A stretch of DNA of 36,689 nt, from positions 1 to 36,689 of the forward strand of contig JAFRVB010000011.1 in assembly GCA_017441845.1 (NCBI GenBank). Reading direction: 5' to 3'. Below are positions 4,890 to 36,689 of the stretch, piece by piece. Position 1 is the stretch's first letter, and every line of letters begins with the position of its first letter. The translations under genes and the position numbers were made by a program. The DNA is from Bacilli bacterium (GTDB lineage: Bacteria; Bacillota_I; Bacilli_A; RF39; UBA660). The notes below the pieces were generated by a model that saw only the letters and a list, made by a program, of their open reading frames with translations, searched no databases and was not told the DNA's origin.

Positions 4890-4942
4890 ATTTTTCTTTA
4901 ATTTTAAAAATAAATATTGTATAATTAAAATAGGTGAATGGT

Positions 4943-5185
4943 ATGAGCATGAGTAGTGAAGATCTTGAAAGAACTGGTGTATTTAATACCTTATTAGATT
5001 TAGAAGATACTGGTTCAATAGATGAAATTGATGAGATTAAAGAGAGACTTGAATATATGGATATTGAAGATTCTAAAAAAAATAAATACTTTGATCTTAT
5101 TAATGAAATTAAAAAAGAAGAAGATCCAAAAACTAGAGAATTTTTGTTTCATAATTTAGCTAAAATAATTAATAAAGAGGGATAG
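4943..5185 (+). CDS. Small acidic hypothetical protein
   Basis: An 80-residue, charged, predicted all-helical cytoplasmic protein that I do not recognise. The ATG at 4943 follows AGGTGA; an upstream in-frame GTG at 4934 overlaps that ribosome-binding site. It is followed one base later by the MscS-type channel gene, so the two are probably co-transcribed, starting from a TATAAT at 4920-4925. Confidence 0.65.
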   Translation: MSMSSEDLERTGVFNTLLDLEDTGSIDEIDEIKERLEYMDIEDSKKNKYFDLINEIKKEEDPKTREFLFHNLAKIINKEG

Positions 5186-5186
5186 G

Positions 5187-6059
5187 ATGGTAATAGATAA
5201 TTTTTATAAATATCTTAGTAGTGTTACTGGTATTGATAAAGTTTATTTTCATTTAATAATAAGTACTGCGCTAGTAATACTTATCTTTTCTCTATTAAAA
5301 AAGATAGCTGAGTTTATTATTAGTAAGACAGTTAAATTAGAAAAACAATATAATGTTAATCAAGTAGTTCAAATAATACTTAGTCTTTTAGGTGTATTAG
5401 TAATATTCTTTGTATGGGAAAACTATGTTAAAAGTTTAATTACATTATTTAGTATTGTTGGAGCTTCTATTATAGTTGCTTTAAGAGAAAGTGTACTTAG
5501 TTTCTTTGCTGGAATATATATTAAATCTAAAAAAGTATTTGTTGTAGGAGATAGAATACAAGTTAATGATATTAAAGGAGATGTTGTTAATATATCAGGT
5601 CTTGATTTTGATATATTAGAGATAGATAATTCTTCTTTTAATGGTCAATCTACTGGTATTATTATTTCTTTACCTAATTCATATGTATTTACTAAAGAGA
5701 TTAAGAATCTTACTAAAGGATTTAAATATGTATGGAATGAAATTACTGTTAAAGTAACATTAGATAGTGATTTAGTAAGTAATAAAAAAGAATTATATAA
5801 GATAGTTAATAGTATAGATTCAGTTAGAGCTATTATTAATAATATGAAAGACCAAAGTAATATTATTGGTACAGATAATAAAGTTTATTTTAATAAATAT
5901 GATCCAATAATATATACTGAGATTAAAGATAATTATGTTCTATTAACTATTAGATATTTAATTGATCCTAAGAAGGGTAGAATTGTTAATAGTGTTATCT
6001 GGAATAAAATATATGAAAGTTATAAAGATAAAAAATTAAAATTATATATAGGAGAATGA
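5187..6059 (+). CDS. MscS-family small-conductance mechanosensitive channel
   Basis: The 290-residue protein has three predicted membrane helices (about 19-38, 57-80 and 84-108). The third is Gly/Ala/Ser-rich (IVGASIIVALRESVLSFFAG), the pore-lining helix of MscS. The beta domain follows at once with VFVVGDRIQVNDIKGDVVNIS and SLPNSYVF, both family signatures, then an alpha/beta cytoplasmic cage domain. It would open on hypo-osmotic shock to release solutes. Length matches E. coli MscS. Its stop overlaps a possible ATG of the next gene (ATGA at 6056-6059). Confidence 0.9.
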   Translation: MVIDNFYKYLSSVTGIDKVYFHLIISTALVILIFSLLKKIAEFIISKTVKLEKQYNVNQVVQIILSLLGVLVIFFVWENYVKSLITLFSIVGASIIVALRESVLSFFAGIYIKSKKVFVVGDRIQVNDIKGDVVNISGLDFDILEIDNSSFNGQSTGIIISLPNSYVFTKEIKNLTKGFKYVWNEITVKVTLDSDLVSNKKELYKIVNSIDSVRAIINNMKDQSNIIGTDNKVYFNKYDPIIYTEIKDNYVLLTIRYLIDPKKGRIVNSVIWNKIYESYKDKKLKLYIGE

Positions 6060-6061
6060 AT

Positions 6062-7345
6062 ATGAAAATAATAAGAGGAGTAGGAATATTTATAACAGTT
6101 TTATTATTAGTTTTAATAGTGCTTTTTAATGTTAATAATGTTGTGTATAAAACTAATAAACAATATATTAACTTCTTTGGTTATAAATTAATGACTATTG
6201 ATAATAAATATGATTATTATCTAGTTAAAAATGTTAAAGTAGATGATGTAATCCTATATGATAATATTAGTTTTAGAGTTAATAGTACAGATTTAAGTAC
6301 AGATAAAGTTAAAGGTAAAATGAATGATTGTCTAAAATTAGCTAACAGTTCTACTGTAGTTTGTAATGATGATTTAGAAGGAAAGGTGGTTATGAAAGTG
6401 AGTGGTGCTAGAGATTTCTTGCTGGTAAATAAGGGTTCTTTAATAGTACTAGTATTATGTATTATATTATTAATATTAGTATTCTTATGGAAACCAAAAG
6501 ATAAGAAAGAAAAGGTAATAGAAAAACCTAAAGAGAAAAAAGAAGATAGTGTTATTGAAATAAATACTGAACCTTTCCAAAGAGAAGAACATCCTGTAGA
6601 AGAAACACCAGAAAATAATAATGATCAAACTGTTATTATAGATACTTCTCCTTTTAAAGAAGAAGTAAAAGAAGATATAGAAGTACCTATAAATACAGAA
6701 GATATTAATAGAGAGGTATCTGAAGTAGAATCATTTAATGTAAATACTAATTTACCAGAACAAAACAATATTGAAGTTCCAAAGAATGATTTTGTTAATA
6801 AATTTGAAATGGCTATGGATACTCCTCCGGTAGAGAATTATGAGGTAGAAGATAACTATGTACCAGAGGATGTAATAGTAGTACCTCATGCTGTACCAGT
6901 AGAGGTTGAAACTAATCAATTTACTGCACCAACAAATGAAGAATTAGAAGATGTTATTGTAGTACCTCTAAGAAAAGAAGAAGATGAAAGTCTAAATGAT
7001 ATCATAGTAGTTCCATATGACAAAGTTATGGAAAAGAAACAAGAAGAAGAACCTGTAGAAAAAGATTATTCGGAGTATTCTGATGTCATAACAGTACCTT
7101 TAACATATTCATCTGATAGATATGATGAGTATGCTGAAGTAATAAAAGTACCTCTATTTAGAGATGAAAAAGATGATTTCTTTGATACTAATGTTTCTAA
7201 TGATATCTTTAGTGATGCTAATATAAATAGAAGTGTAGAAATAGATCTATCTGATATTAAAGTAGATAGTACATCTGAAAAAGTACAAGTTACTCCTATA
7301 TATAGTAGTGATGTAGATCTAAATGAGGATGTAGAAGTTTTATAA
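6062..7345 (+). CDS. Degenerate SipW-like membrane protein with repeated VIxVP tail motifs
   Basis: A 427-residue protein with one membrane helix near residues 5-22, an extracytoplasmic domain of about 100 residues, a second helix near 118-138 and a long acidic cytoplasmic tail. The topology and phrases such as FFGYKL, VDDVILYDNISFRV and GKVVMKVSG resemble SipW-type signal peptidases, but the catalytic SGSM serine motif is absent (TIDNKYDYY stands there), so it is probably not a peptidase. The tail repeats a short motif five times (DVIVVP, DVIVVP, DIIVVP, DVITVP, EVIKVP) plus two VIxxxTxPF variants. ATG 6062 is spaced 7 bases from GGAG; the earlier ATG at 6056 is too close. The next gene encodes a surface repeat protein, a plausible client. 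Function is inference. Confidence 0.6.
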   Translation: MKIIRGVGIFITVLLLVLIVLFNVNNVVYKTNKQYINFFGYKLMTIDNKYDYYLVKNVKVDDVILYDNISFRVNSTDLSTDKVKGKMNDCLKLANSSTVVCNDDLEGKVVMKVSGARDFLLVNKGSLIVLVLCIILLILVFLWKPKDKKEKVIEKPKEKKEDSVIEINTEPFQREEHPVEETPENNNDQTVIIDTSPFKEEVKEDIEVPINTEDINREVSEVESFNVNTNLPEQNNIEVPKNDFVNKFEMAMDTPPVENYEVEDNYVPEDVIVVPHAVPVEVETNQFTAPTNEELEDVIVVPLRKEEDESLNDIIVVPYDKVMEKKQEEEPVEKDYSEYSDVITVPLTYSSDRYDEYAEVIKVPLFRDEKDDFFDTNVSNDIFSDANINRSVEIDLSDIKVDSTSEKVQVTPIYSSDVDLNEDVEVL

Positions 7346-7368
7346 GAGCAGTAATGCTCTTTTTCTTT
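7345..7368 (+). terminator. Intrinsic terminator
   Basis: AGAGCA-GTAA-TGCTCT followed by a T-rich tract, beginning at the last base of the preceding stop codon. Confidence 0.8.
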
Positions 7369-7448: not shown

Positions 7449-9158
7449 ATGGAGCAAATAAAGATGTACTTAAATAGTTATAAATTCTATATAACAACAG
7501 CAATAGCTGTACTATTAATGATAACTACACTAATAAGTGTAGGTTTTGGTGCTTTAAATAAAAATTTATCAATTGCTGGAGATGTTAATTATACACAAGA
7601 TACTGGTAATATGATTATGAAATGGACTAATTCTTCAACAACAGATTTTCATAATTCTACATATAAAGGCCTAATTAAAACAATAGACTTTTTGGATAAT
7701 AAAAATATACCTAATAATGCGGTTGCATCATGGGATGTATCAGCAGAAACTAATTCTGGAAAAGTAATAGCTTGGATAATAGATGATCCAAATAATGCAG
7801 GATATTATAAATTATACATTGGAGCAGATGGAGATGTAGTGGGAAATCCGGATTCAAGTTATATGTTTTATCAATTTATGGAATGTGAAACAATAAATTT
7901 TAATAATAATTTTGATGTTTCTAAAGTAACAAATATGTCATATATTTTTTATAGTTATAAAAGCGGAAGCACTTCAAAATTAACAACTATTAATGGATTA
8001 AACTATTTTGATACATCTAAAGTAACAAATATGTCATTTATGTTTTATTATTGTAGCAGTCTAACAAGTCTCGATTTAACAAGCTTTAATACAAATAATG
8101 TAACCAATATGTCAAATATGTTTGCTTGGTGCAATGGTCTCACAAATCTCGATTTAACAAGCTTTGATACAAATAATGTAACCAACATGTCATATATGTT
8201 TAACTCATGCCGTAGTTTAACGAGCCTCGATGTAACAAACTTTAATACAAACAAAGTAACCAATATGTCATATATGTTTGATTCATGTCGTAGTTTAACG
8301 AGCCTCGATGTAACAAACTTTAATACAAACAATGTAACCAATATGTCAGTTATGTTTAACTCATGCCGTAGTTTAACGAGCCTCGATGTAACAAACTTTA
8401 ATACAAATAATGTAACCAACATGTCAAATATGTTTAGTGATTGCGGAAATTTAGATACCGTTGATTTAACTAATTTTAATACGAGTAATGTAACAAATAT
8501 GCATAGTATGTTTAGTGTGTGTAACTCTTTAACAACTATAGATGTAACTAATTTTAACACCTCTAAATGTACTGATATGCAAAGTATGTTTTCTGCTTGC
8601 CAAACGCTAACAACTATTGATGTTAGTGGATTTGATACAAGCTTAGTAGAAACATTTGCGGAAATGTTTAAAGGTTGTAGAAATCTCACAAGTTTAGATG
8701 TAACAAACTTTAATACAAGCAGTGCATACACTATGATAGAAATGTTTTATGATTGTAGAACTTTAACATATTTAGATTTATCAAATTTTAATACTTCAGG
8801 AGTTATCAATATGCAAAATATGTTTAGCAACTGTCAAAACTTAATTGATGTTAATGTTTCAAGTTTTGATACATCTAATGTAACAACTATGAGAGGAATG
8901 TTTGCTGACTGTGATGCTTTATTATCGTTAGATCTTACATCTTTTAATACATCTGGGGTGCGAGATACATTTGTTATGTTTAGAGGTTGCGATGTGCTTA
9001 CTGAAATAAAAATATCATCTTTGTGGGATGTAAGTAATGTTACTAATGGCACTAACATGTTTAGTGGAAGTACTAATTTGCCTAATTATAATTCTAGTAC
9101 AGTTGATGTAAGTATGGCTAAACCAACAACTCAAGGAGGATATTTAACTTTGATTTAA
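7449..9158 (+). CDS. BspA-like (DUF285) leucine-rich-repeat surface protein
   Basis: The 569-residue protein has a single N-terminal hydrophobic segment (about 14-34, ending VGFGALNKNLSIAG), a non-repeated region to about 150, then some 15 repeats of 26 residues built on FNTSNVTNMSxMFxxCxSLTSLDLT. This is the DUF285/BspA repeat that forms a solenoid on the cell surface and in other bacteria mediates adhesion to host or bacterial partners. The hydrophobic segment followed by LSIAGDV recalls SipW-dependent signal peptides; the neighbouring SipW-like protein fits that, but it seems catalytically dead. No C-terminal sorting signal is present, so the N-terminal helix is probably the anchor. Three central repeats are nearly identical at DNA level. 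Confidence 0.85.
   Translation: MEQIKMYLNSYKFYITTAIAVLLMITTLISVGFGALNKNLSIAGDVNYTQDTGNMIMKWTNSSTTDFHNSTYKGLIKTIDFLDNKNIPNNAVASWDVSAETNSGKVIAWIIDDPNNAGYYKLYIGADGDVVGNPDSSYMFYQFMECETINFNNNFDVSKVTNMSYIFYSYKSGSTSKLTTINGLNYFDTSKVTNMSFMFYYCSSLTSLDLTSFNTNNVTNMSNMFAWCNGLTNLDLTSFDTNNVTNMSYMFNSCRSLTSLDVTNFNTNKVTNMSYMFDSCRSLTSLDVTNFNTNNVTNMSVMFNSCRSLTSLDVTNFNTNNVTNMSNMFSDCGNLDTVDLTNFNTSNVTNMHSMFSVCNSLTTIDVTNFNTSKCTDMQSMFSACQTLTTIDVSGFDTSLVETFAEMFKGCRNLTSLDVTNFNTSSAYTMIEMFYDCRTLTYLDLSNFNTSGVINMQNMFSNCQNLIDVNVSSFDTSNVTTMRGMFADCDALLSLDLTSFNTSGVRDTFVMFRGCDVLTEIKISSLWDVSNVTNGTNMFSGSTNLPNYNSSTVDVSMAKPTTQGGYLTLI
7503..7570 (+). repeat. 68-bp direct repeat, copy 1 (shared by both BspA-like genes)
   Basis: Identical base for base to 36441-36508, in the region encoding the membrane segment. 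The two copies are about 28.9 kb apart in direct orientation. Confidence 0.9.
8202..8435 (+). repeat. Three near-identical 78-bp tandem repeats inside the BspA-like gene
   Basis: Units starting at 8202, 8280 and 8358 match at almost every base, including synonymous positions, whereas flanking repeats have diverged. They contain TTAACGAGCCTCGATG, locally richer in GC than the surroundings. This indicates recent expansion and potential for length variation by slippage or recombination. Confidence 0.85.
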
Positions 9159-16001: not shown

Positions 16002-16028
16002 GTTAATAGTAGGAAAAGGTGGTTGACT

Positions 16029-19000
16029 ATGAAGATATATCTATTTTTGTCATCTAAAATTTTATCTTATACGTTACCAATAGATATAAGTGGTAGTTAT
16101 ACTTTTGACGCGGATCCTTTTGAAGAATCAAAGCTTATTAATGTAGAAGCTCGTGGTAATGATTGGGTTTTATATTCTACTCCAGAAGTTGAATTATTTG
16201 TTAATAATGTTGCTTCTAAAGATGTGATTCTTGAAAAGGATAGTTTTTATTTACTTAGAAGAGATGAAAAGAACTTTTTAATATTTGTTACTGAATCATT
16301 TGATTCTTCTTTTTCTACTTATAATATATTAGATGGTGGAGCTAAATTTACTATTTCAAATGATGATACAGCATCTATTAAATATGATTGTTCTTTTGTA
16401 ACACCAATATCTATTTCTACTGTTAATGGATTCCCTGTAATAAGTCAAAGCCCTAATGCTTTAACATACGTTAATGGTAAGAGAATCTATGGAAATAAAT
16501 ATTATATTCAAAATGGAGATAGAATTAATATTTTTGGATTAAAATTAATATTTGTTAATAAATTATTACTTATAAATAACCCTGGAGGTAAAGTTAGAGT
16601 TACTGAAAAGATGTCTAATGTTTTAAAATATACACTTCCTCCATTAGAAGATTATATTAATGAAGAAGTTAGAGATGAAGAATTATATTCTGAAAAAGAT
16701 TATTTCTCTAAATCACCTAGAATTATTAGAAATATAGATGAAGAAGATGTTGAATTCTCTGGAGCACCTGCTAATGAAGAAAATAATGGTATGTCTATGT
16801 TTTTAACAGTTGCTCCTATGCTTACTATGGGTATTACTTCAGTAGTATCTTCAGCAACTACAGTTCAAAAACTTATGGCAGGAGAAACAGATCTATCTGA
16901 GTGTTGGCCTACACTTGTTATGGCTCTAGCAATGCTTCTTTCTATGTTATTCTGGCCATTATTAATTAAATTAATTGAAGATAAAAAAGCTAAAAAGAGA
17001 AAAGAAAAAACTATTGAAAAATATAATGAGTATTTAAAAGTAAAAGAAAAAGAATTAGAGAAAATACGTAAAGAACAAGAATCTATCTTAAGAGAAAATC
17101 TAATTACTACTGAAGAATGTCATGCGATTATTCAAAATAAGAGTACTCATTTCTGGGATAAGAGAATAGATTATTCTGACTTCTTACAAGTTAGAGTAGG
17201 TATGGGTAATGAAAAATTAAAAGTAAATATAGATTATCCAGATGGTGGCTTTTCAATTGATGAAAATGAACTTAAAGAAGCTGCTGATAAGTTAGTTGAA
17301 AAATATAAATATATTTATAATGTACCTATAGGTTACTCATTCTATGAGAATAATGTTACAGGTATACTTAGTAATGATAGAAAAGGTTATTATTTCTTAA
17401 ATAATATGTTATTACAATTATTTAGTTTTTATAGTTATGATGATTTAAAATTAGTTGTATTAACTAATGAATTTAATAAGAGTGATTGGGATTATTTAAG
17501 ATATAGTAATTATAATTTTAGTAATAATAAAACTATTAGGTATTTTGCATCTACTCCTGATGATTATAAGAGATTAACAGAATACTTTAATAGTATTGTT
17601 GGACCTAGACTTCAAAATGAGAATGGATATAGTCTAAGTAAACCTTACTTTTTAATTGTTATTGATGATTATTCTATGGCAGATGATTGTGATTTTATTA
17701 AAGCAATTACTGAATGTGGAGTTAATGTAGGATTTAGTATTATCCTACTAGGAAAACAATTAAATGATTTTCCTTCTAAATGTAGTAATTTTATTAGTAT
17801 TAAAGATGATCATTCTAGTATTATTTCTAATTCATATGAGAAACAAGAGACAACTCCATTTAAAGAAGAAATTAATTATAGAATTAATATGATGAGTGTT
17901 AGTAAGATACTTTCTAATATACCTATTGAATTTGAAAGTATGACTAGAGGATTACCTGAATCTATTTCTTTTATGGAAATGGAAAAAGTAGGTAAAGTTA
18001 ATCAATTAAATATACTTAATAGATGGAAGAGTAATGATGCGACTACTAGTTTAAGAGCTGAAGTTGGTGTTGGTGGAGATGGAGATTTAATGTATTTAGA
18101 TTTACATGAAAAATTCCATGGTCCACATGGATTGATTGCTGGTATGACTGGTTCTGGTAAATCAGAGTTTATTATTACTTATATTTTATCTATGTGTATT
18201 AATTATAGTCCTGATGATGTGTCTTTCATCTTAATAGATTATAAAGGTGGAGGATTAGCTGGTGCTTTTGAAAACAAAGTTAATAATATAGTTTTACCTC
18301 ATCTAGCAGGTACTATTACTAACTTAGATAAAGCTGAAATGGATAGAACTTTAGTTAGTATCGATTCAGAGTTAAAAAGACGTCAAGCTATGTTCAATGA
18401 AGCTAGAGATAAATTAGGTGAAAGTACTATTGATATTTATAAATATCAAAGATTCTATAATGATGGTAGATTAGAAGAAGCTATTCCACATTTATTTATA
18501 ATTTGTGATGAGTTTGCCGAATTAAAAGCACAACAACCTGATTTTATGGATAGTTTGATTTCTACTGCTCGTATTGGACGTTCACTTGGAGTTCACTTAG
18601 TTCTAGCTACTCAAAAACCTAGTGGTGTTGTTAATGATCAAATTTGGTCTAATACTAAGTTTAGAGTATGTTTAAAAGTACAAGATGCTACTGATTCAAG
18701 AGAAATGTTAAAACGTGATGATGCAGCTTCTATTAAAGAAGTTGGTCGTTTCTATTTACAAGTAGGATATGATGAATATTTTGCTTTAGGTCAATCTGCT
18801 TGGTGTGGAGCTAAATATTATCCATCTGAAAAGATTATTAAAACAGTGGATAAGAGTGTTAATTTCATAGATAATACTGCTATGTTTATCAAGAGTATTC
18901 AAGCTAACAATGAAAAGAGAGTAGAAGCTCAAGGGGATCAAATAGGTGTTATCTTAAAAGATATTATCGAAACAGCTAATAGAGTAGATAAGAAATCTAG

Positions 19001-20576
19001 AAGACTTTGGTTAGAAAATATACCTGAAGTTATATTGGTATCTGATCTAATTAAAAAATATAATGTTACTTCTGAAGGAGTAAAAGCTATTCTTGGAGAA
19101 TATGATGCTCCTGAGATGCAAGAACAAGGATTATTATCAATCAATTTACCAGAAGATGGAAGCTTTGGTATCTATGGTAATGATAGTGCTGAAAGAGAAC
19201 AATTATTATCATCAATTATCTTCTCTTTGTGTTCTATATATAGTGCTAAAGATATCAATATTTATGGAATTGATTTTGGATCAGAATCATCTAGAAACTT
19301 CTTAGATTTTCCACAAGTTGGAGGAATAGTATTTAATGGTGATGATGAACAATATAAATCGATAATGAAATATATGTTCTCTATGTTAAAAACAAGAAAA
19401 CAATTATTAGTAGATTATGGTGGTTCATTTGAAAATTATAATTCAAAGAACGAAGAAAAATTACCAGTAGTATTATTCTTTATGAATAACTTTGAAGCTA
19501 TGGTCGAGAATTATCCTAATGTTCAAGAAACTTTAGAACCATTCGCTAGAGAATGTTCTAGATATGGTATTATTCTAGCTATTACTTCATCTACACCAGG
19601 TACTGTAGGTAGAAGAATATATACTAATTTCAATACTAATTTTGCTTTACATTTCAATGATGAAAGTGCTTATTATGATATCTTTAATATGAGAGTAACT
19701 GTTAATCCTAGAGATTTCTTTGCTAGAGGATTATGTCATAATTTAGATACAGTACATGAATTCCAAACAGCTTCTATTGTTGATGAGAATCATAGTGTAT
19801 CTGAATATGTAAATGAAGTAGTACAAAGTATTGATAAGAGTGTTAAAGCTCCTAGAATACCTACATTACCAGAGACAGTTACTATGGAAGATATACCTAT
19901 GGATAATTTAGGATTATCTAGATTACCTATTGGTATTGGTAGAACTTCTTTAAAACCTGTTTTATATGACTTTACACAATATGCTTCAACTATAATTTCG
20001 GGATTAAAGATTACTAATTTATATTCATTTGTAGATTCATTAGTTAATTTATTAACTAGAATCAATAATACTCATGTTATATTTGTAGACTTTACTAATG
20101 AATTACCTTCTGCGAATAGAGAAGGAGTACATTATACTAATGAAGATTTTGATAATAAATTTAAAGCTATTATTAATTCTCAAAATGAAATAGTAAAACG
20201 TAAAGATTTAAGAGCAGTTTATATTCTATTTGGAGTTAGTAAAGCTGATAAGAGATTAGAAGATGTTTCTTTATTAAATAAATTATCTGCTTCAGTTAAA
20301 GCAAGTGAAAATACAAATATTATCTTTGTAGATTCAGGAAATATGTTAAAAGCTTGTGAATTTGAAGATTGGTTTAGTATCAGAAATAATTCTAGTGGTA
20401 TTTGGGTTGGTCGTGGTGTTTATGATCAAAATATCTTTAGAATTAATAGAGTTACTAAGGAAATGCAAGCTGAAATTGGTAATAACTATGGATATGTTGT
20501 TTCTGAAGGAGAGACTGAATTAACTAAGTTAATTGAGTTTAATGATATGCTAGAAGGGGATGATATTCTTGAATAA
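16029..20576 (+). CDS. essC: Type VII secretion ATPase EssC (FtsK/SpoIIIE family)
   Basis: The 1515-residue membrane ATPase that drives export in T7SSb systems. Two FHA-like beta domains fill about 1-190. Two membrane helices lie near 254-278 and 292-313, and a charged coiled linker follows. ATPase domain 1 is intact: Walker A GMTGSGKS (705-712) and Walker B LFIICDEFAEL (about 822-832). Domain 2 (from about 1043) has GIYGNDSAEREQ in place of a GxxGxGK[ST] loop, and domain 3 (from about 1300) is also without a P-loop, so only D1 looks able to hydrolyse ATP. The ATG at 16029 follows AAAGGTGG; an in-frame TTG lies two codons earlier. It overlaps the YukD gene by eight bases. Confidence 0.95.
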   Translation: MKIYLFLSSKILSYTLPIDISGSYTFDADPFEESKLINVEARGNDWVLYSTPEVELFVNNVASKDVILEKDSFYLLRRDEKNFLIFVTESFDSSFSTYNILDGGAKFTISNDDTASIKYDCSFVTPISISTVNGFPVISQSPNALTYVNGKRIYGNKYYIQNGDRINIFGLKLIFVNKLLLINNPGGKVRVTEKMSNVLKYTLPPLEDYINEEVRDEELYSEKDYFSKSPRIIRNIDEEDVEFSGAPANEENNGMSMFLTVAPMLTMGITSVVSSATTVQKLMAGETDLSECWPTLVMALAMLLSMLFWPLLIKLIEDKKAKKRKEKTIEKYNEYLKVKEKELEKIRKEQESILRENLITTEECHAIIQNKSTHFWDKRIDYSDFLQVRVGMGNEKLKVNIDYPDGGFSIDENELKEAADKLVEKYKYIYNVPIGYSFYENNVTGILSNDRKGYYFLNNMLLQLFSFYSYDDLKLVVLTNEFNKSDWDYLRYSNYNFSNNKTIRYFASTPDDYKRLTEYFNSIVGPRLQNENGYSLSKPYFLIVIDDYSMADDCDFIKAITECGVNVGFSIILLGKQLNDFPSKCSNFISIKDDHSSIISNSYEKQETTPFKEEINYRINMMSVSKILSNIPIEFESMTRGLPESISFMEMEKVGKVNQLNILNRWKSNDATTSLRAEVGVGGDGDLMYLDLHEKFHGPHGLIAGMTGSGKSEFIITYILSMCINYSPDDVSFILIDYKGGGLAGAFENKVNNIVLPHLAGTITNLDKAEMDRTLVSIDSELKRRQAMFNEARDKLGESTIDIYKYQRFYNDGRLEEAIPHLFIICDEFAELKAQQPDFMDSLISTARIGRSLGVHLVLATQKPSGVVNDQIWSNTKFRVCLKVQDATDSREMLKRDDAASIKEVGRFYLQVGYDEYFALGQSAWCGAKYYPSEKIIKTVDKSVNFIDNTAMFIKSIQANNEKRVEAQGDQIGVILKDIIETANRVDKKSRRLWLENIPEVILVSDLIKKYNVTSEGVKAILGEYDAPEMQEQGLLSINLPEDGSFGIYGNDSAEREQLLSSIIFSLCSIYSAKDINIYGIDFGSESSRNFLDFPQVGGIVFNGDDEQYKSIMKYMFSMLKTRKQLLVDYGGSFENYNSKNEEKLPVVLFFMNNFEAMVENYPNVQETLEPFARECSRYGIILAITSSTPGTVGRRIYTNFNTNFALHFNDESAYYDIFNMRVTVNPRDFFARGLCHNLDTVHEFQTASIVDENHSVSEYVNEVVQSIDKSVKAPRIPTLPETVTMEDIPMDNLGLSRLPIGIGRTSLKPVLYDFTQYASTIISGLKITNLYSFVDSLVNLLTRINNTHVIFVDFTNELPSANREGVHYTNEDFDNKFKAIINSQNEIVKRKDLRAVYILFGVSKADKRLEDVSLLNKLSASVKASENTNIIFVDSGNMLKACEFEDWFSIRNNSSGIWVGRGVYDQNIFRINRVTKEMQAEIGNNYGYVVSEGETELTKLIEFNDMLEGDDILE

Positions 20577-20832
20577 TAAAGTATTAATTCAATTATTTGT
20601 TCCTGAGATAGATGAGACTTTTGATTTATTTATTCCTGTTAATGAATTATTATGGAAGATTAAGAAATTAGTTGTTAAATCTGTTTATGATTTAACTAAT
20701 GGAGAGATTGATCCTACTAAAGAATATATTCTAATTAATAAGATTACAGGAGAAATATATAAAGATAATGTAATTATTAGAGATACTAACATTAGAAACG
20801 CTACAGAGATAGTATTGTTATTGTCAAAATAG
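20569..20832 (+). CDS. YukD/EsaB-like ubiquitin-fold protein of type VII secretion
   Basis: An 87-residue protein with a beta-grasp pattern: VLIQLFVPEIDETFDLFIP, a central helix (LLWKIKKLVVKSVYDLT) and a closing strand ATEIVLLLS. Size, pattern and position directly after essC identify it as YukD/EsaB-like, a small cytoplasmic component needed for activity or regulation of T7SSb. I favour a TTG start at 20569, about nine bases after GAAGGGG; an ATG at 20560 is in frame but abuts the GGGG. Translation is likely coupled to essC. Gene order (essC before yukD) is the reverse of the Bacillus and Staphylococcus arrangement. Confidence 0.8.
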   Translation: MNNKVLIQLFVPEIDETFDLFIPVNELLWKIKKLVVKSVYDLTNGEIDPTKEYILINKITGEIYKDNVIIRDTNIRNATEIVLLLSK

Positions 20833-24213: not shown

Positions 24214-26646
24214 ATGGGTTTTAGTGCTAAAAATTATACTGTTCATGTACCTACCATGGACGATTTTTCCAGTGATGTTGTTGATTATAAATATAAAGAT
24301 CATTCTACAGAAAATGTAGATTTTAATCGTGAAAAGTCTCAAGTTGAAGTTTTAGAAATGAAAGATGATTTAGGTGCGAATAGCCTTCATCCATTTCGTG
24401 CTCCTTCGACAAACCATCGTTTAAAAACTGCATCAAGAGTTGGTGCTACTGCTGCTACAGGAGTAATCTCTGTAGGAGAAGGAGTAGGACAATTTGGTGA
24501 AGCTGTTATGGATACGGGAGCCATTATTGTTACTGGATTAGCAACACCTTTTACTTTCTTAGGTGATAAGATAAGTGGTACACATGATACTGAGAAAATG
24601 TGGGATGATACAAAAGCATTTGTTTCAACTAATCACGTAAAAAATGCATTTGACAAAATGTATGATAATACTGCTTTTGGAAACTATCTTAAAGAAAATG
24701 CTTATGGATTTGATACTACACGTCAAGTGGGAAATATTGTTGGTTATTCTGGTGCTGTTATTGCGACTGCTGGAATTGGTGGTTCTATTGCTGGTGTAGG
24801 AGGAGCTGGTATTTCTCCTATAGCAATGGGTGGTACAGCTGCTTTTGCTGGATTCTCTCGACATTCTGCACATGCATGGAATGATGGGGCTTCCACTACT
24901 GAAGGTCTTGGTTATGGTGCTGCAGGTGCTGCCTGGGAAGGTTTGCAATGGTATGCCGGAGGTAAAATATCACAAGTAGGTGGTTGGGGAGATAAACTCG
25001 GTGTATTTATCAATAATAGTAGTCAAGGAGCTAGAATAGCATCTAGAATTGGTTTAAATTCTCTAGATGGAGGATTAGAAGGATTCGTTCAACCAGGTTT
25101 ATCTTTAATATATAAAGATTATGGTGAAAAGAATGTTTTTGACAACTATTCAAAGGCTTTTGGAGAAGCTGGAGGAATGAAGAATGTTACTTTACAAACT
25201 GCTCTAGCTGGGGGAATGAGTACTGTAGGAGAAATTGGTAATTTACGAAGATTGTTATCATCTAACGAAGATAATTTTAGAGAATTTAATGTTGACTTAT
25301 GTTCTAAACGATCTAATAAAACATATCTTAAAGGTATTAAAGCAGCTCAGAGCAAATTCGAAGGATTTTTTAGAAATTTTAGAGAACATGCTTCAAAACA
25401 CTCTGGAAAAGTTCAAGAATATGCTGTTAAATTAGCAAAAGAATATGATTTGAGTGAAAGTCAAATTGGATTAATATCAATATCAGCTAAACTTCATGAT
25501 TTAGGAATGATGGGTGGTTGGATTGAAAAAAAACAAGTTATTGATGCATTAAATGAAATGCATGATTTACCTATGGATAAAGTAGATGATTTAATTAGAT
25601 CTTTTGAGTCAAAAAATTCAGACTTTGTTAAAATAGATGATTTATCTGATTCTTTATCTTCTCTTGGATTAAGTGAATCAAAATTATCAGAATTTATGGG
25701 TATAAGAGCAAGGGAAGCACATCCTTTAAACTCAGCATTAATTATTTTGGAAACTGATTATGTTCCAACTGAATACGACAAAGAAATTGCTGCAATATTA
25801 GCTATGTCTCATAGTAAATCTACTTCTGGAATAAGATGTATTAGTGAACCAGAAATGTGGGAAGGATGTGTTAGAAGATTAGAATCTGCCTTAAGTGATT
25901 CTGGAAAAAGTCATTTGTTTGATTCTAAAAAAATATTAGATATGATACATGATCCAAATAGATTTTTAGAATTACAAGATGCTGCTTTATGTATTAGAGA
26001 TGGCGATGCTATGGCTCCTATTGTTTTAGATGAAAACGGTAGAACTGTGATGCAAAATATGGTGTCCCTAGATACTAATGTTGATGCAACAAGAGTTGAA
26101 TTTAATGAAACACCATACACTAAAAATAACGTAAACACATTAGGTGAATTAAAAGCAAAAGAATCTGAACAAATAATAGATTTGATGTATAATAAAGATG
26201 GAAGCCCTAGGATAGATCCTGTTAGTGGAAAGCAAGCTGAGTGTACTAATGTATTTAGTAAGAGGGTACATGCAGGAGAAAAAAATCTAGAACTCGACTC
26301 ACATTATTCTAAAAATAATGGAATGTCTGAATATTCGGGAACTGTTAAAGTGATTGATCCTAGATTAGCTCCTGGATCAACTGTTGATGCTATATTTGAT
26401 AGTGTTGGGGAAGTTGCAACATACACAAATTGTGATACAAGAACTTTAACTATAGAATTACCTACTGAAATGAAAGGGACAGAGTTGGGTAATTGGTATG
26501 AAAGTGAAATTTCTAAGATGGCTACTTCAAAAAGAAATAAATTTATTGATGATTTATCAAATGACTTATCTGTAGAAAAAGCTTCTAGTTATGAAGCGGA
26601 TATTAAGGATTTCTTTGATAATAGAATTATAATTAAATGGAATTAG
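24214..26646 (+). CDS. T7SS effector with shared N-terminal module and divergent HD-GYP-like domain
   Basis: An 810-residue protein. The first ~330 residues (opening MGFSAKNYTVHVP, then Gly/Ala-rich hydrophobic stretches near 75-115 and 175-215) are closely similar to the effector at 27418 and resemble pre-toxin regions of Bacillota T7SS toxins. A distinct domain follows with H392/H396 (EHASKHSGKV), H428-D429 (LHDLGMMGG), H503 (EAHPLNSALII), H533 (MSHSKSTSG) and D596/D598 (IRDGDAM), the order and spacing of an HD-GYP phosphodiesterase, though the Lys after HD and the GYP signature are lost. About 200 unrecognised residues end the protein. Likely an exported nucleotide- or cyclic-dinucleotide-hydrolysing toxin (inference). 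Start follows GGAGGTGA. Confidence 0.7.
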   Translation: MGFSAKNYTVHVPTMDDFSSDVVDYKYKDHSTENVDFNREKSQVEVLEMKDDLGANSLHPFRAPSTNHRLKTASRVGATAATGVISVGEGVGQFGEAVMDTGAIIVTGLATPFTFLGDKISGTHDTEKMWDDTKAFVSTNHVKNAFDKMYDNTAFGNYLKENAYGFDTTRQVGNIVGYSGAVIATAGIGGSIAGVGGAGISPIAMGGTAAFAGFSRHSAHAWNDGASTTEGLGYGAAGAAWEGLQWYAGGKISQVGGWGDKLGVFINNSSQGARIASRIGLNSLDGGLEGFVQPGLSLIYKDYGEKNVFDNYSKAFGEAGGMKNVTLQTALAGGMSTVGEIGNLRRLLSSNEDNFREFNVDLCSKRSNKTYLKGIKAAQSKFEGFFRNFREHASKHSGKVQEYAVKLAKEYDLSESQIGLISISAKLHDLGMMGGWIEKKQVIDALNEMHDLPMDKVDDLIRSFESKNSDFVKIDDLSDSLSSLGLSESKLSEFMGIRAREAHPLNSALIILETDYVPTEYDKEIAAILAMSHSKSTSGIRCISEPEMWEGCVRRLESALSDSGKSHLFDSKKILDMIHDPNRFLELQDAALCIRDGDAMAPIVLDENGRTVMQNMVSLDTNVDATRVEFNETPYTKNNVNTLGELKAKESEQIIDLMYNKDGSPRIDPVSGKQAECTNVFSKRVHAGEKNLELDSHYSKNNGMSEYSGTVKVIDPRLAPGSTVDAIFDSVGEVATYTNCDTRTLTIELPTEMKGTELGNWYESEISKMATSKRNKFIDDLSNDLSVEKASSYEADIKDFFDNRIIIKWN

Positions 26647-27417: not shown

Positions 27418-29427
27418 ATGGGTTTTTCTTTTACAGGATATAAACCGAAGGTTCCATCAATGGCTAGTTATTCTGGTAATGTTCAAGATTATAGGTATAA
27501 AGATAAACAATTAAATGATGTTGGAATTACTAGAAATAATGATGTTCAAAATGTAGAAATGGTCAGTGTTGATAATGTAAATACTGATTCTAGATTTGTT
27601 GATGGAATTAAAAGAACTGGGGCAACTGCTGCTACCGGTATTTTATCCGTGGGAGAAGGAGTATGTATATTTGGTGAAGCTTTAGTTGATACTGGAGCAA
27701 TTATAGGTAGTGGTATAGTTACACCGTTTACTTGGTTAGGAGATAAAATTTTTGGTACAAATCATACAGAAGAGATGTGGAGTGAAACTAGATCTTTTGT
27801 GTCAGAAGAACATGTAAAAAATGCTTTTGATAATTATTATGATAATACAGATGTTGGACAAGCGCTTAAAAATAATGCTTATGGTTTTGATACTGTTAGA
27901 AGTGTAGGAAATGAAGTTGGTTACATAGGTGGAGTTGTCGGACTAACAGTTTTAACTGGTGGTGTAGGTACAGCTGGATTAGGAGCAGCAGGTGGTGGCT
28001 TATCTATGTCTGGTACGATTGGTGTTATTGCAGGAACTGCTGGAGTAGGAAGACATACAGAAGAGGCATGGAATTCAGGTGCACCTACTGGTCGAGGTTT
28101 AGCTAGTGGAGCTTTAGGTGGAGCTTGGGATGGAGTACTATATTGGACCGGTGGAAAAATAGCTGGATTAGCACCAAGTCTTTCGGGGAGTCTAAATACT
28201 ACTATTCGTATTGGGGCAAATACTGGATTGGGTTTTGCTGATGGGTTTTTAAGACCTGTTGTTAATTCTGTTGCTTCAGGAAAAAGTTATAATGAAGAGT
28301 TTATGGCTAATGGTGGTTTTCGTACTGTTGCTATTGAAGGATTAATGGCTGGAGGACTTTCTGGAATTGGAGAACGTGGTTTAAGAAATCGTATTCAATT
28401 TGGAGGAACTAGATCAAAAGTGACTGGTCCAATTGATCCAGCTTATAGATCTAAATTAATTAGTGAATTTGATGCTTTGTTTTTGGGTGGTAACAATCAT
28501 ACTGAGGCAGTTAATTATTATCATAATTTATTTTCTAATACTGATAATATAGAAGCTTTGGAAGTTTTAGCAACAATTATAGATGCAAAAAAACAAAATC
28601 CTAATTTTGTTTTTACAACGTGTGTGGATGCATATAATACTTCTTTTTATTCAAGGAGTGAGGCAAGAATTAATATTACAAAAAATGCAATCCGAGGTAA
28701 AAGAACTGCTACTGGAATGCATGAAGCAGGGCATTTGCTGTATGATTTTAAATTATCGAGGAATGTACCTAATGAGTGGAATGAGATTGCAGCAAGGGCT
28801 AGGCTTTTTAATTCTAATAAGGCTATTAATGTGAGAAATGATTTCATTGTTGAAGCAAGTAAGCAACGTAGATTATGCACTCAATTAGGTAATCAGGAAT
28901 TCAATAAACTAGTAGGTATTGGTGAAAAATGGGCTTCTTTTGATGAATATTTTAATTATATGTTTGAACAAAATAAAGCCAAATTATTAGCAACAGATGA
29001 TGCAACTTTTTTGAGAGATATTGAAATTGGTAAAGCACTAGATGATAGATGGTATCAGGTTAGTTTTTATGATGAATTTATTAAAGATGCTACTGAGTTG
29101 CAAATAGAATCAAATAAAACTAGAATTGGTAGAGATATTTATCATTCTGATTATTCTGATTATATGGCAATAAGCGATATATTAGATGCTTTATATGAAG
29201 GAACTGGAAAAGATTTAAATGGTAAGACTATCGGAGTAGAAAACATTGCGTATCATGGTGATAATTATTATGATGATGGTTATGTTGGTTTATCTTTTGA
29301 TGAAATTATTGCTAATTATACTCAATTAAAAACTACTGGAAGTAAAAGAAGTATTCAATTATTGAGACAGATGTGTGGGGATGAATTTGTTGAAACTTTA
29401 GAGAAAGTCTATAAGACTATTAAGTAG
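27418..29427 (+). CDS. T7SS effector with shared N-terminal module and HExxH metallopeptidase domain
   Basis: A 669-residue protein. Residues 1 to about 325 are the same module as in the effector at 24214; over one stretch of about 105 residues roughly two thirds are identical by eye. The C-terminal domain has the zinc motif H435-E-A-G-H439 after a TATGM strand, a downstream AISDILDALYEG helix, a YHGDNYYDD segment and E629 in SFDEIIANYTQL as probable third ligand. This order matches HExxH peptidase domains of phage-head-linked and polymorphic toxins (helix DIxDALxGG, HG.x.Y, then E[AF]xAN). It should be a zinc protease toxin delivered to competing cells. Start follows ACTGGAGGTACCT; 16 bases after the DUF4176 gene. 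Confidence 0.75.
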   Translation: MGFSFTGYKPKVPSMASYSGNVQDYRYKDKQLNDVGITRNNDVQNVEMVSVDNVNTDSRFVDGIKRTGATAATGILSVGEGVCIFGEALVDTGAIIGSGIVTPFTWLGDKIFGTNHTEEMWSETRSFVSEEHVKNAFDNYYDNTDVGQALKNNAYGFDTVRSVGNEVGYIGGVVGLTVLTGGVGTAGLGAAGGGLSMSGTIGVIAGTAGVGRHTEEAWNSGAPTGRGLASGALGGAWDGVLYWTGGKIAGLAPSLSGSLNTTIRIGANTGLGFADGFLRPVVNSVASGKSYNEEFMANGGFRTVAIEGLMAGGLSGIGERGLRNRIQFGGTRSKVTGPIDPAYRSKLISEFDALFLGGNNHTEAVNYYHNLFSNTDNIEALEVLATIIDAKKQNPNFVFTTCVDAYNTSFYSRSEARINITKNAIRGKRTATGMHEAGHLLYDFKLSRNVPNEWNEIAARARLFNSNKAINVRNDFIVEASKQRRLCTQLGNQEFNKLVGIGEKWASFDEYFNYMFEQNKAKLLATDDATFLRDIEIGKALDDRWYQVSFYDEFIKDATELQIESNKTRIGRDIYHSDYSDYMAISDILDALYEGTGKDLNGKTIGVENIAYHGDNYYDDGYVGLSFDEIIANYTQLKTTGSKRSIQLLRQMCGDEFVETLEKVYKTIK

Positions 29428-33473: not shown

Positions 33474-34730
33474 ATGAATGACTATGAAATTAAAAATTAT
33501 AAATTAAGAGATGCTACATCTTCAGTTAAAGCAGCTTTATTTGATGTAACTTCTGAATTAAATGTAAAAATACTTTCTTTAGATGATAATGATCCCGAAC
33601 AAGTTAAATTAAAAAAAGAATTAACTGAGAGATTAAAAAGTATTATGGATTTTACTAATTCATTCTATGATGAAGTAGTCTTAATAGATAAGAGTATGAA
33701 TGGAGTAGTAGAAGAAAAAGAAGAAGTACAAGAAGAAAAAGACGAAGAAGATGATACAGTTCAAATATCTGATAAAGCTATTGATGATATGATGAATGTT
33801 GAAAATGAAGATGATGTAACAGAAGTAGAGTTAGAAGAAAAAGAAGAGGAACCAAAAGAAGAAGAAAAAGAAGAACAACCAGTAGAAGATAAAGGTGACG
33901 CTATAGTTATAAATTTAACTGACTATGAAAAATTAAAAGGTAAAAAAATAGAGACAGAAGAAGAAAAAGAGGAAGAAACAAAAGAAAAAGAACCTGAAGA
34001 AGAATCTGGTGAAAAATTATTTGATTTAGATAATGTAAAAGAGGTTGAAGAAGAAGAAAAAACTGAAGAACCAGTAGAAGAGTCAGTGGAAGAAAAACCT
34101 GTTACAGAGGATTTAAATAAAGATGACGCAATAGTTTTAAACTTAGCTGATTATGAAAGATTAAAAGAAAATAAACCTGCTGAAGAGGAAGAAAAAACGG
34201 AAGAAGAACCAACTGAAGAACCTCAAGAAGAAGTACCTCAAGAAGAACCAGTAGAGGAAACACCTTCAGAGGTACCAGTTGAAACACCAGTAGAAGAAAC
34301 TAAAGAGGAAGAAGTACAAGAAGAGACTCCAATAGAAGAAACTGCTCCTGCTATTGAGACAACACCACCTGTAGAAGCAATAAGTACTGGAGAAGTACCA
34401 AAAGAGTTAACTGAAACAGAACAAGCTATTGAAGAACAAAAAGAAGCTGTTGCTAATAAGACTATTTCGTATATCATAAATAAAGATAATATTGATATGC
34501 CTAAAGCTATATTAGTAACTAGTTTACAATTTGATAAATTATTATTATCACGTGATGATCAAAAAACATTATGTAAATTAAGAAAATATATGGTTATGCC
34601 GGGAGAAAAAGAGGAAGAAAAAGTAAATTTAGAAGAAATGTTACAGCAAGCTGAAGAATTATATAAACAAGGAGATACTGAAGCTGCTGAAGAGTTATAT
34701 AACAAAATTAGTGAATTAAACGGTAATTAA
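33474..34730 (+). CDS. Very acidic, largely disordered protein
   Basis: A 418-residue protein. An N-terminal helical domain of about 75 residues is followed by roughly 245 residues of Glu/Pro/Val/Thr low complexity, then a C-terminal helical part with a TPR-like ending (LEEMLQQAEELYKQGDTEAAEELYNKISEL). Two copies of a short ordered motif interrupt the acidic linker: DAIVINLTDYEKLKGKK near 142-158 and DAIVLNLADYERLKENK near 217-233. No membrane segment is present. The motif copies look like docking sites for a partner protein. Function unknown. Confidence 0.65.
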   Translation: MNDYEIKNYKLRDATSSVKAALFDVTSELNVKILSLDDNDPEQVKLKKELTERLKSIMDFTNSFYDEVVLIDKSMNGVVEEKEEVQEEKDEEDDTVQISDKAIDDMMNVENEDDVTEVELEEKEEEPKEEEKEEQPVEDKGDAIVINLTDYEKLKGKKIETEEEKEEETKEKEPEEESGEKLFDLDNVKEVEEEEKTEEPVEESVEEKPVTEDLNKDDAIVLNLADYERLKENKPAEEEEKTEEEPTEEPQEEVPQEEPVEETPSEVPVETPVEETKEEEVQEETPIEETAPAIETTPPVEAISTGEVPKELTETEQAIEEQKEAVANKTISYIINKDNIDMPKAILVTSLQFDKLLLSRDDQKTLCKLRKYMVMPGEKEEEKVNLEEMLQQAEELYKQGDTEAAEELYNKISELNGN

Positions 34731-36386: not shown

Positions 36387-36689
36387 ATGAAACTAATAGA
36401 CAAATTTTTAAATAGTTATAAGTTCTATATAACTACAGCTATAGCTGTACTATTAATGATAACTACACTAATAAGTGTAGGTTTTGGTGCTTTAAATAAA
36501 AATTTATCTATCGCAGGTGATGTTGAGTACGCAGAAGATATGGGCAACATGATAATGAAATGGACTAGTTCGGCTTCTACAGATTTTCATAGTTCAACAT
36601 ATAGAGCAAAAATAAAATCAGTAGATTTTTTAGATAATAAGAATATTCCAAATAATGCGGTAGCGACTTGGGATGTATCAGTAAATCCA
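36387..36689 (+). CDS. Second BspA-like surface protein (5' part, cut by window edge)
   Basis: Positions 36387-36689 give 101 codons before the edge. The protein begins MKLIDKFLNSYKFYITTAIA and continues with the same membrane segment, NKNLSIAGDV, and the region through PNNAVATWDVS as the protein encoded at 7449; differences cluster in the first eight residues and after residue 47. DNA is identical over 68 bases at the membrane segment. The conserved leader (AGAGGATTATAACT) gives the same ribosome-binding arrangement. BspA repeats presumably follow outside the window. Confidence 0.85.
   Translation, partial: MKLIDKFLNSYKFYITTAIAVLLMITTLISVGFGALNKNLSIAGDVEYAEDMGNMIMKWTSSASTDFHSSTYRAKIKSVDFLDNKNIPNNAVATWDVSVNP
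36441..36508 (+). repeat. 68-bp direct repeat, copy 2
   Basis: Identical to 7503-7570, same orientation, coding for the membrane segment of the second BspA-like protein. Confidence 0.9.

What the first reader, a model, noticed from the sequence alone, without database searches (positions are those of the whole stretch)
6062..7345. Dead SipW-like protein with a cytoplasmic VIxVP motif array
A two-helix protein resembling a SipW peptidase but without SGSM carries five [DE][VI]IxVP motifs in an acidic tail at 6868-7155 (plus two related). It directly precedes a surface protein with a SipW-like signal segment. It might be a receptor or scaffold for surface-protein export, the repeats docking a cytoplasmic partner.
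Basis: partly seen in the sequence, partly recalled or inferred. Interest (0 to 1): 0.6.

Follow-up and report, generated by a model that had tools for sequence, protein, structure and literature searches.

The report
Dead signal peptidase with docking-motif tail
A rumen/gut bacterium carries a membrane protein that descends from a protein-cutting enzyme (signal peptidase) but has lost its cutting residues and instead bears a long, flexible inner tail with five copies of a short sticky motif, probably to hold a partner protein at the membrane; the same motif ends a protein encoded among secretion-system genes.

Summary
ORF 6056-7345 (429 aa) has two membrane helices, a ~90-aa external domain and a 283-aa acidic, predicted-disordered cytoplasmic tail with five [DE][VI]IxVP copies (6869-7153) plus two IEVP relatives. 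Shuffling the tail never gave more than two copies in 200,000 trials. The whole MAG has seven copies (0.6 expected). The S26B/SipW reading is supported through two genus-mate orthologs at the same locus (ATGA overlap with mscS): profiles with and without the helices match active SGSM-type SipW proteins (E down to 5e-14), and the ortholog's model resembles LexA/UmuD/SipA folds (weakly). Ser and His are absent in all three, yet dN/dS is 0.34, so it is a maintained pseudo-peptidase. The proposed link to the neighbouring surface protein fails: a terminator separates them, orthologs lack that gene, and it belongs to a dispersed PARCEL/DUF285 family. New lead: the 8-mer LEDVIVVP recurs once in the MAG, at the C-terminus of a type VII-secretion-cluster protein. 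This is conserved in genus mate G003, where a second, unrelated scaffold carries four copies. Best reading: membrane scaffold with a lineage-specific docking-motif array for a shared cytoplasmic partner, perhaps secretion-related. Partner unknown.

The parts
6056..7345 (+). Dead SipW-like membrane protein P0001, 429 aa
   Evidence: ORF; orthologs at the same locus in G002 and G001
6077..6136 (+). TM helix 1 (about residues 8-27)
   Evidence: hydropathy, AF2 helix 3-33
6146..6409 (+). External S26B-like domain (residues 31-118), catalytic Ser and His absent
   Evidence: alignment A1; ectodomain-only HMM; ortholog fold search
6329..6364 (+). Cys92 and Cys103, conserved pair in the three orthologs (disulfide candidate)
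   Evidence: alignment A3; equivalent Cys in active SipW L025 and L027
6431..6490 (+). TM helix 2 (about residues 126-145)
   Evidence: AF2 helix 118-144
6494..7342 (+). Acidic, predicted-disordered cytoplasmic tail (residues 147-429)
   Evidence: net charge -50; pLDDT <50 over 149-172 and 174-429
6671..6688 (+). Related motif EDIEVP
6764..6781 (+). Related motif NNIEVP
6869..6886 (+). Motif copy 1 DVIVVP
6950..6967 (+). Motif copy 2 DVIVVP (in LEDVIVVPL)
6998..7015 (+). Motif copy 3 DIIVVP
7082..7099 (+). Motif copy 4 DVITVP
7136..7153 (+). Motif copy 5 EVIKVP
5187..6059 (+). MscS-family channel gene; overlaps P0001 by 4 nt (ATGA), arrangement kept in G001 and G002
7344..7361 (+). Intrinsic-terminator-like hairpin right after the P0001 stop
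   Evidence: 4 found in the region vs 0.5 expected
7449..9158 (+). PARCEL/DUF285 surface protein with SipW-type leader; separate unit, not part of the system
16023..20576 (+). T7SSb ATPase EssC; possible functional context for the shared motif
   Evidence: TIGR03928, E 2.4e-269
20560..20832 (+). 90-aa protein in the YukD/EsaB position after essC; assignment by position and size only
   Evidence: no Pfam or NCBIfam match

Best explanation
P0001 is a catalytically dead SipW-type (S26B) signal peptidase turned membrane scaffold. The two-helix body and external domain persist without the Ser/His dyad. The cytoplasmic tail has expanded in this lineage into a disordered, acidic strand with 5 (to 7) copies of a short linear motif, [DE][VI]IxVP. 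These copies would dock a cytoplasmic protein multivalently and hold or titrate it at the membrane. The same partner probably recognises the LED[VI]IVVP end of a protein encoded in the type VII secretion cluster, which would make P0001 a docking or regulatory platform for that pathway. Shown: homology, loss of catalytic residues, purifying selection on orthologs, the motif array, and motif reuse. Inferred: docking, avidity, a shared partner and the T7SS connection. It is probably translated together with mscS and ends that operon.
For: Family profile hits SGSM-bearing SipW proteins (E 5.1e-14 L025, 9.4e-10 L026). Ectodomain-only profile E 7e-9, SipW profile vs G002 ortholog 2.5e-8 and vs G001 1.7e-6. 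TIGR02228 hit on the ortholog, E 6e-4. Ortholog model matches lambda-repressor CTD, UmuD, LexA and SipA 4n31 (E 0.04-0.14). dN/dS 0.34 in both body and tail. Array far above chance with synonymous codon differences. LEDVIVVP occurs once elsewhere in the MAG, at the C-terminus of the T7SS-cluster protein L148:12011-13099, and as LEDIIVVP in its G003 ortholog. Four further copies sit in an unrelated 646-aa G003 scaffold and one in a zinc-ribbon membrane protein. Neither motif setting is seen in G002.
Against: The array is absent from the G001 and G002 orthologs, so it is not the gene's ancestral function. G003's P0001 ortholog is missing from its assembly. A shuffled tail shares an 8-mer with the proteome 0.033 times on average, so one shared 8-mer is suggestive, not proof. 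No partner is known. P0001's own fold model is unusable (pLDDT 41).
Confidence: 0.5

Rival explanations
1. One reading: a receptor/scaffold for export of the neighbouring surface protein, the tail recruiting export factors.
For: A SipW-type leader in the next gene and a SipW-derived ectodomain.
Against: Terminator between the genes; orthologs without that neighbour; the neighbour is one of at least eight dispersed PARCEL copies; an active SipW with SGSM exists elsewhere in the MAG.
Confidence: 0.1
2. Envelope sensor or accessory subunit of the co-translated MscS channel: the external domain senses membrane or wall state, and the tail relays it by binding a cytoplasmic protein.
For: mscS-P0001 with a 4-nt overlap kept in three species, preceded by a ClpC-family ATPase and an 83-aa gene.
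Against: mscS is widespread without a P0001-like gene next to it, so the pairing is genus-specific; no interaction data.
Confidence: 0.2
3. SipA-like pseudo-peptidase: the dead ectodomain still binds a peptide of an exported protein and acts as an assembly chaperone; the tail is secondary.
For: Precedent in S. pyogenes SipA (PMC4049620); 4n31 appears among the fold hits of the ortholog.
Against: The box-B loop lining the cleft is deleted in P0001; no pilus or TasA-like gene at the locus.
Confidence: 0.15
4. Drifting low-complexity tail on a decaying pseudoenzyme, no specific function.
For: Tail length and motifs differ strongly between species.
Against: Ortholog dN/dS 0.34; five copies against at most two in 200,000 shuffles with differing codons; motif reuse in other proteins.
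Confidence: 0.08

Closest known systems
SipW-type S26B signal peptidase (NF046067, TIGR02228)
   Same: Two-helix topology, FGY segment, NVKxxD(I/V)I block, GKVV block; homologous by profile
   Different: No SGSM Ser and no box-D His; 283-aa motif-bearing tail
S. pyogenes SipA (PDB 4n31), signal-peptidase-like protein essential for pilus polymerisation (PMC4049620)
   Same: Catalytically dead signal-peptidase homolog on a Gram-positive surface
   Different: S26A-type, pilus locus, cleft retained; nothing comparable to the motif tail was examined here
B. subtilis SipW, reported as bifunctional peptidase/regulator (Terra et al. 2012, cited in PMC4551309 and PMC13082335)
   Same: SipW-family protein with a proposed second, regulatory role
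   Different: B. subtilis SipW is an active peptidase; that its regulatory part is the short C-terminal region is from memory
Type VII secretion cluster proteins (TIGR03928 EssC context)
   Same: The C-terminal LED[VI]IVVP of one cluster protein equals the P0001 motif
   Different: P0001 is an integral membrane protein outside that gene cluster

Membership tests
SipW-type S26B signal peptidase (active) | Catalytic Ser in the SGSM box | tested here: not met
   Absent (gap) in P0001 and absent in both orthologs
SipW-type S26B signal peptidase (active) | Catalytic His in the THR(I/V) box | tested here: not met
   SFR in P0001, VTR in orthologs
SipW-type S26B signal peptidase (active) | Two-TM topology with external domain | tested here: met
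   Hydropathy and AF2 helices
S26/S24 (LexA/signal peptidase-like) fold | Homologous fold of the external domain | tested here: met
   Sequence profiles; ortholog fold hits are weak but several of the top ten are this superfamily; P0001's own model uninformative
SipA-like pseudo signal peptidase | Retained peptide-binding cleft | not testable with these tools
   Model confidence too low; box-B region deleted in P0001
SipA-like pseudo signal peptidase | Location in a pilus/fibre gene cluster | tested here: not met
   Neighbours are clpC, mscS and htpG
Short-linear-motif docking scaffold | Repeated peptide motif in a disordered segment, above chance | tested here: met
Short-linear-motif docking scaffold | Same motif in other proteins of the lineage | tested here: met
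   T7SS-cluster protein and 646-aa scaffold and zinc-ribbon protein in G003
Short-linear-motif docking scaffold | Known binding domain for the motif | not testable with these tools
   No complex prediction or binding data available

The most novel reading that the evidence does not exclude
[DE][VI]IxVP is a lineage-specific docking signal of a type VII secretion pathway: a component (the EssC ATPase, or a YukD/EsaB-like ubiquitin-fold protein gripping the acidic-hydrophobic strand much as SUMO grips its interaction motifs) reads the C-terminal LEDVIVVP of a T7SS protein. A pseudo-signal-peptidase with five copies acts as its membrane-bound hub or decoy.
Probability: 0.15. Interest if true: 0.75.

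Novelty: new variant of a known kind. Interest (0 to 1): 0.42.

Why it matters
Dead signal peptidases are known, but their partners and roles are mostly not. A pseudo-SipW whose tail is a repeated docking motif, shared with a type VII secretion cluster protein, gives a concrete and cheap way to find the partner (peptide pull-down). It could also reveal a targeting signal in an uncultured group of Bacilli.

Tried and rejected
(1) Pfam/NCBIfam on P0001 alone: only spurious TM or coiled matches. (2) Direct protein searches in genus and family: no convincing ortholog; synteny through mscS found them. (3) Motif mimicking the FtsZ C-terminal peptide: own FtsZ ends DNEDIPPFLRDRNY, unlike VIxVP. (4) Motif arrays in other genera: in 117 genomes hits are at about the reverse-pattern control rate and no cluster was seen among the listed hits; the list was truncated. 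(5) The motif match in LexA is a conserved part of that protein, not a docking site. (6) The G134 hit (L140) shows no homology to the G003 646-aa scaffold. (7) AF2 on P0001 full length: too poor to use. (8) Functional adjacency with the surface gene rejected.

Full report
Setting. The window is contig 7 of a 784-kb, about 68% complete MAG. Genus mates G001 and G002 correspond to the records RUG343 and RUG13444; G003 is a further MAG of the genus.

Observation. ORF 6056-7345 encodes 429 aa: TM1, a ~90-aa external domain, TM2, a K-rich juxtamembrane stretch, then an acidic tail (net -50) predicted disordered throughout. Five [DE][VI]IxVP copies lie at residues 272-366. In 200,000 shuffles of the tail the count never exceeded two. 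Genome-wide, 0.63 copies are expected and 7 observed: five here, one in LexA and one in a T7SS-cluster protein. The copies use different codons, so the peptide and not the DNA is conserved.

Ancestry. Pairwise BLAST to the MAG's own SipW (L003, SGSM present) is only marginal (E 0.001 for a single comparison). The key step was synteny: in G002 and G001 the same locus carries a 231-232 aa ortholog that starts within the mscS stop (ATGA), as here; in G002 the clpC and 83-aa genes upstream are seen as well. A three-sequence profile retrieves SGSM-type S26B peptidases across the family (E 5e-14, 9e-10, 4e-9). A profile of the external domain alone still does so at 7e-9, and a profile of active SipW proteins finds the G002 and G001 orthologs at 2.5e-8 and 1.7e-6, but P0001 itself only at 0.035. 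Foldseek on the G002 ortholog model (ectodomain pLDDT mostly about 70-84) lists lambda-repressor CTD, UmuD, LexA and the dead peptidase SipA among its top ten, although no hit is below E 0.04. Ser and His of the catalytic dyad are missing in all three. A Cys pair (92/103) is conserved and also present in the active SipW relatives L025 and L027, suggesting a disulfide. In the tree the clade sits nearest that Cys-bearing active group, weakly and with long branches; another dead pair (L011, L045) forms a separate clade, so loss of catalysis may have happened at least twice. dN/dS between G001 and G002 is 0.34 for both body and tail: the gene is maintained.

Neighbour. The following gene is a PARCEL/DUF285 repeat surface protein with a SipW-type leader. 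An intrinsic-terminator-like hairpin directly follows the P0001 stop. The orthologous loci lack this gene, and eight reading frames with the same leader are scattered over the MAG, some at contig ends. PARCELs are described as mobile and dispersed (PMC2996958). The adjacency is best explained by insertion.

Motif reuse. The 8-mer LEDVIVVP occurs once more in the MAG: near the C-terminus of a 362-aa protein followed by WXG100-like genes (L148:12011-13099). The exact 8-mer is expected 4.5e-5 times, though a shuffled tail shares some 8-mer with the proteome 0.033 times on average. Its G003 ortholog, with a diverged linker, keeps DNDKLEDIIVVP in the same place. In G003 an unrelated 646-aa protein carries DVISVP twice and EMISVP twice in an acidic segment, and a zinc-ribbon membrane protein carries ADIITVPLV; the own-MAG ortholog of the latter lacks it. 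In G002 neither setting has the motif. Elsewhere in the family the pattern occurs at about control rate. So this is a genus-level, perhaps sub-genus, linear motif used by several unrelated proteins, as expected if one cytoplasmic domain reads it.

Mechanism. I favour a membrane-tethered docking scaffold: five weak sites give avidity for one partner, while the dead ectodomain and helices supply membrane location and perhaps an external contact. The T7SS link is suggestive: EssC is encoded in this window, EsaB/YukD-like ubiquitin-fold proteins are near-universal T7SS parts of unclear role (PMC11217815; PMC5845737), and acidic-flanked VIxV strands resemble SUMO-interacting motifs (from general knowledge). 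No partner was tested. The conserved mscS coupling offers an equally testable alternative.

Verdict. Real and well above chance. The fold claim is supported mainly through orthologs, the surface-export role is not supported, and the docking role is plausible. Dead signal peptidases and SipW proteins with extra roles have precedents, so I file it as a new variant of a known kind.

Noticed in passing
window 24214-26646, 27418-29427; L148 7389-8165, 8222-9727, 10355-11056: Five proteins in T7SS-type neighbourhoods share an N-terminal segment starting MGFS (about 60 aa, with a P and acidic V-E repeats) before unrelated domains (HD-like, C39-like, transglutaminase-like by eye): a possible secretion-targeting leader.
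   Followed up: partly
L044, L051 (G225, G093): Active SipW proteins with 660-670 aa frames whose cytoplasmic tails repeat DLEKT(S/M)(L/F)(F/Y)R(M/V)(V/I)SVD, reminiscent of phospho-Thr/FHA sites such as OdhI/GarA (from memory). SipW tails with linear motifs may be a wider theme.
   Followed up: no
window 4934-5185: 83-aa gene between clpC and mscS, conserved in the genus, starting MSMS(S/N)ED(L/I)E(R/K)TG: a similar Thr motif, no family match.
   Followed up: no
L011:1495-2049 and L045: A second class of catalytically dead SipW proteins (no SGSM, FGY(V/S)F(Y/F)LQ); L011 lies just downstream of enolase. L011 matches TIGR02228 at 2.8e-9.
   Followed up: partly
window 33474-34730 and L148:3633-5048: Acidic proteins sharing another short motif, AIV(I/L)NLxDYE(K/R)L (two copies) and PIVINVNDYNS: possibly a related linear-motif class.
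   Followed up: no
window 36387-36689, ends of contigs C6 and C9, L151, L152, L155, L159: A dispersed family of PARCEL surface proteins with a near-identical leader (SYKFYITTAIAVLLMITTLISVGFGALNKNLSIAGDV); several sit at contig ends, where the assembly probably broke on them.
   Followed up: partly
L208:591-2531 (G003): 646-aa scaffold with four [DE][VM]ISVP copies in an acidic segment and a C-terminal stretch that looks like a coiled coil, next to an ABC ATPase resembling SufC.
   Followed up: partly
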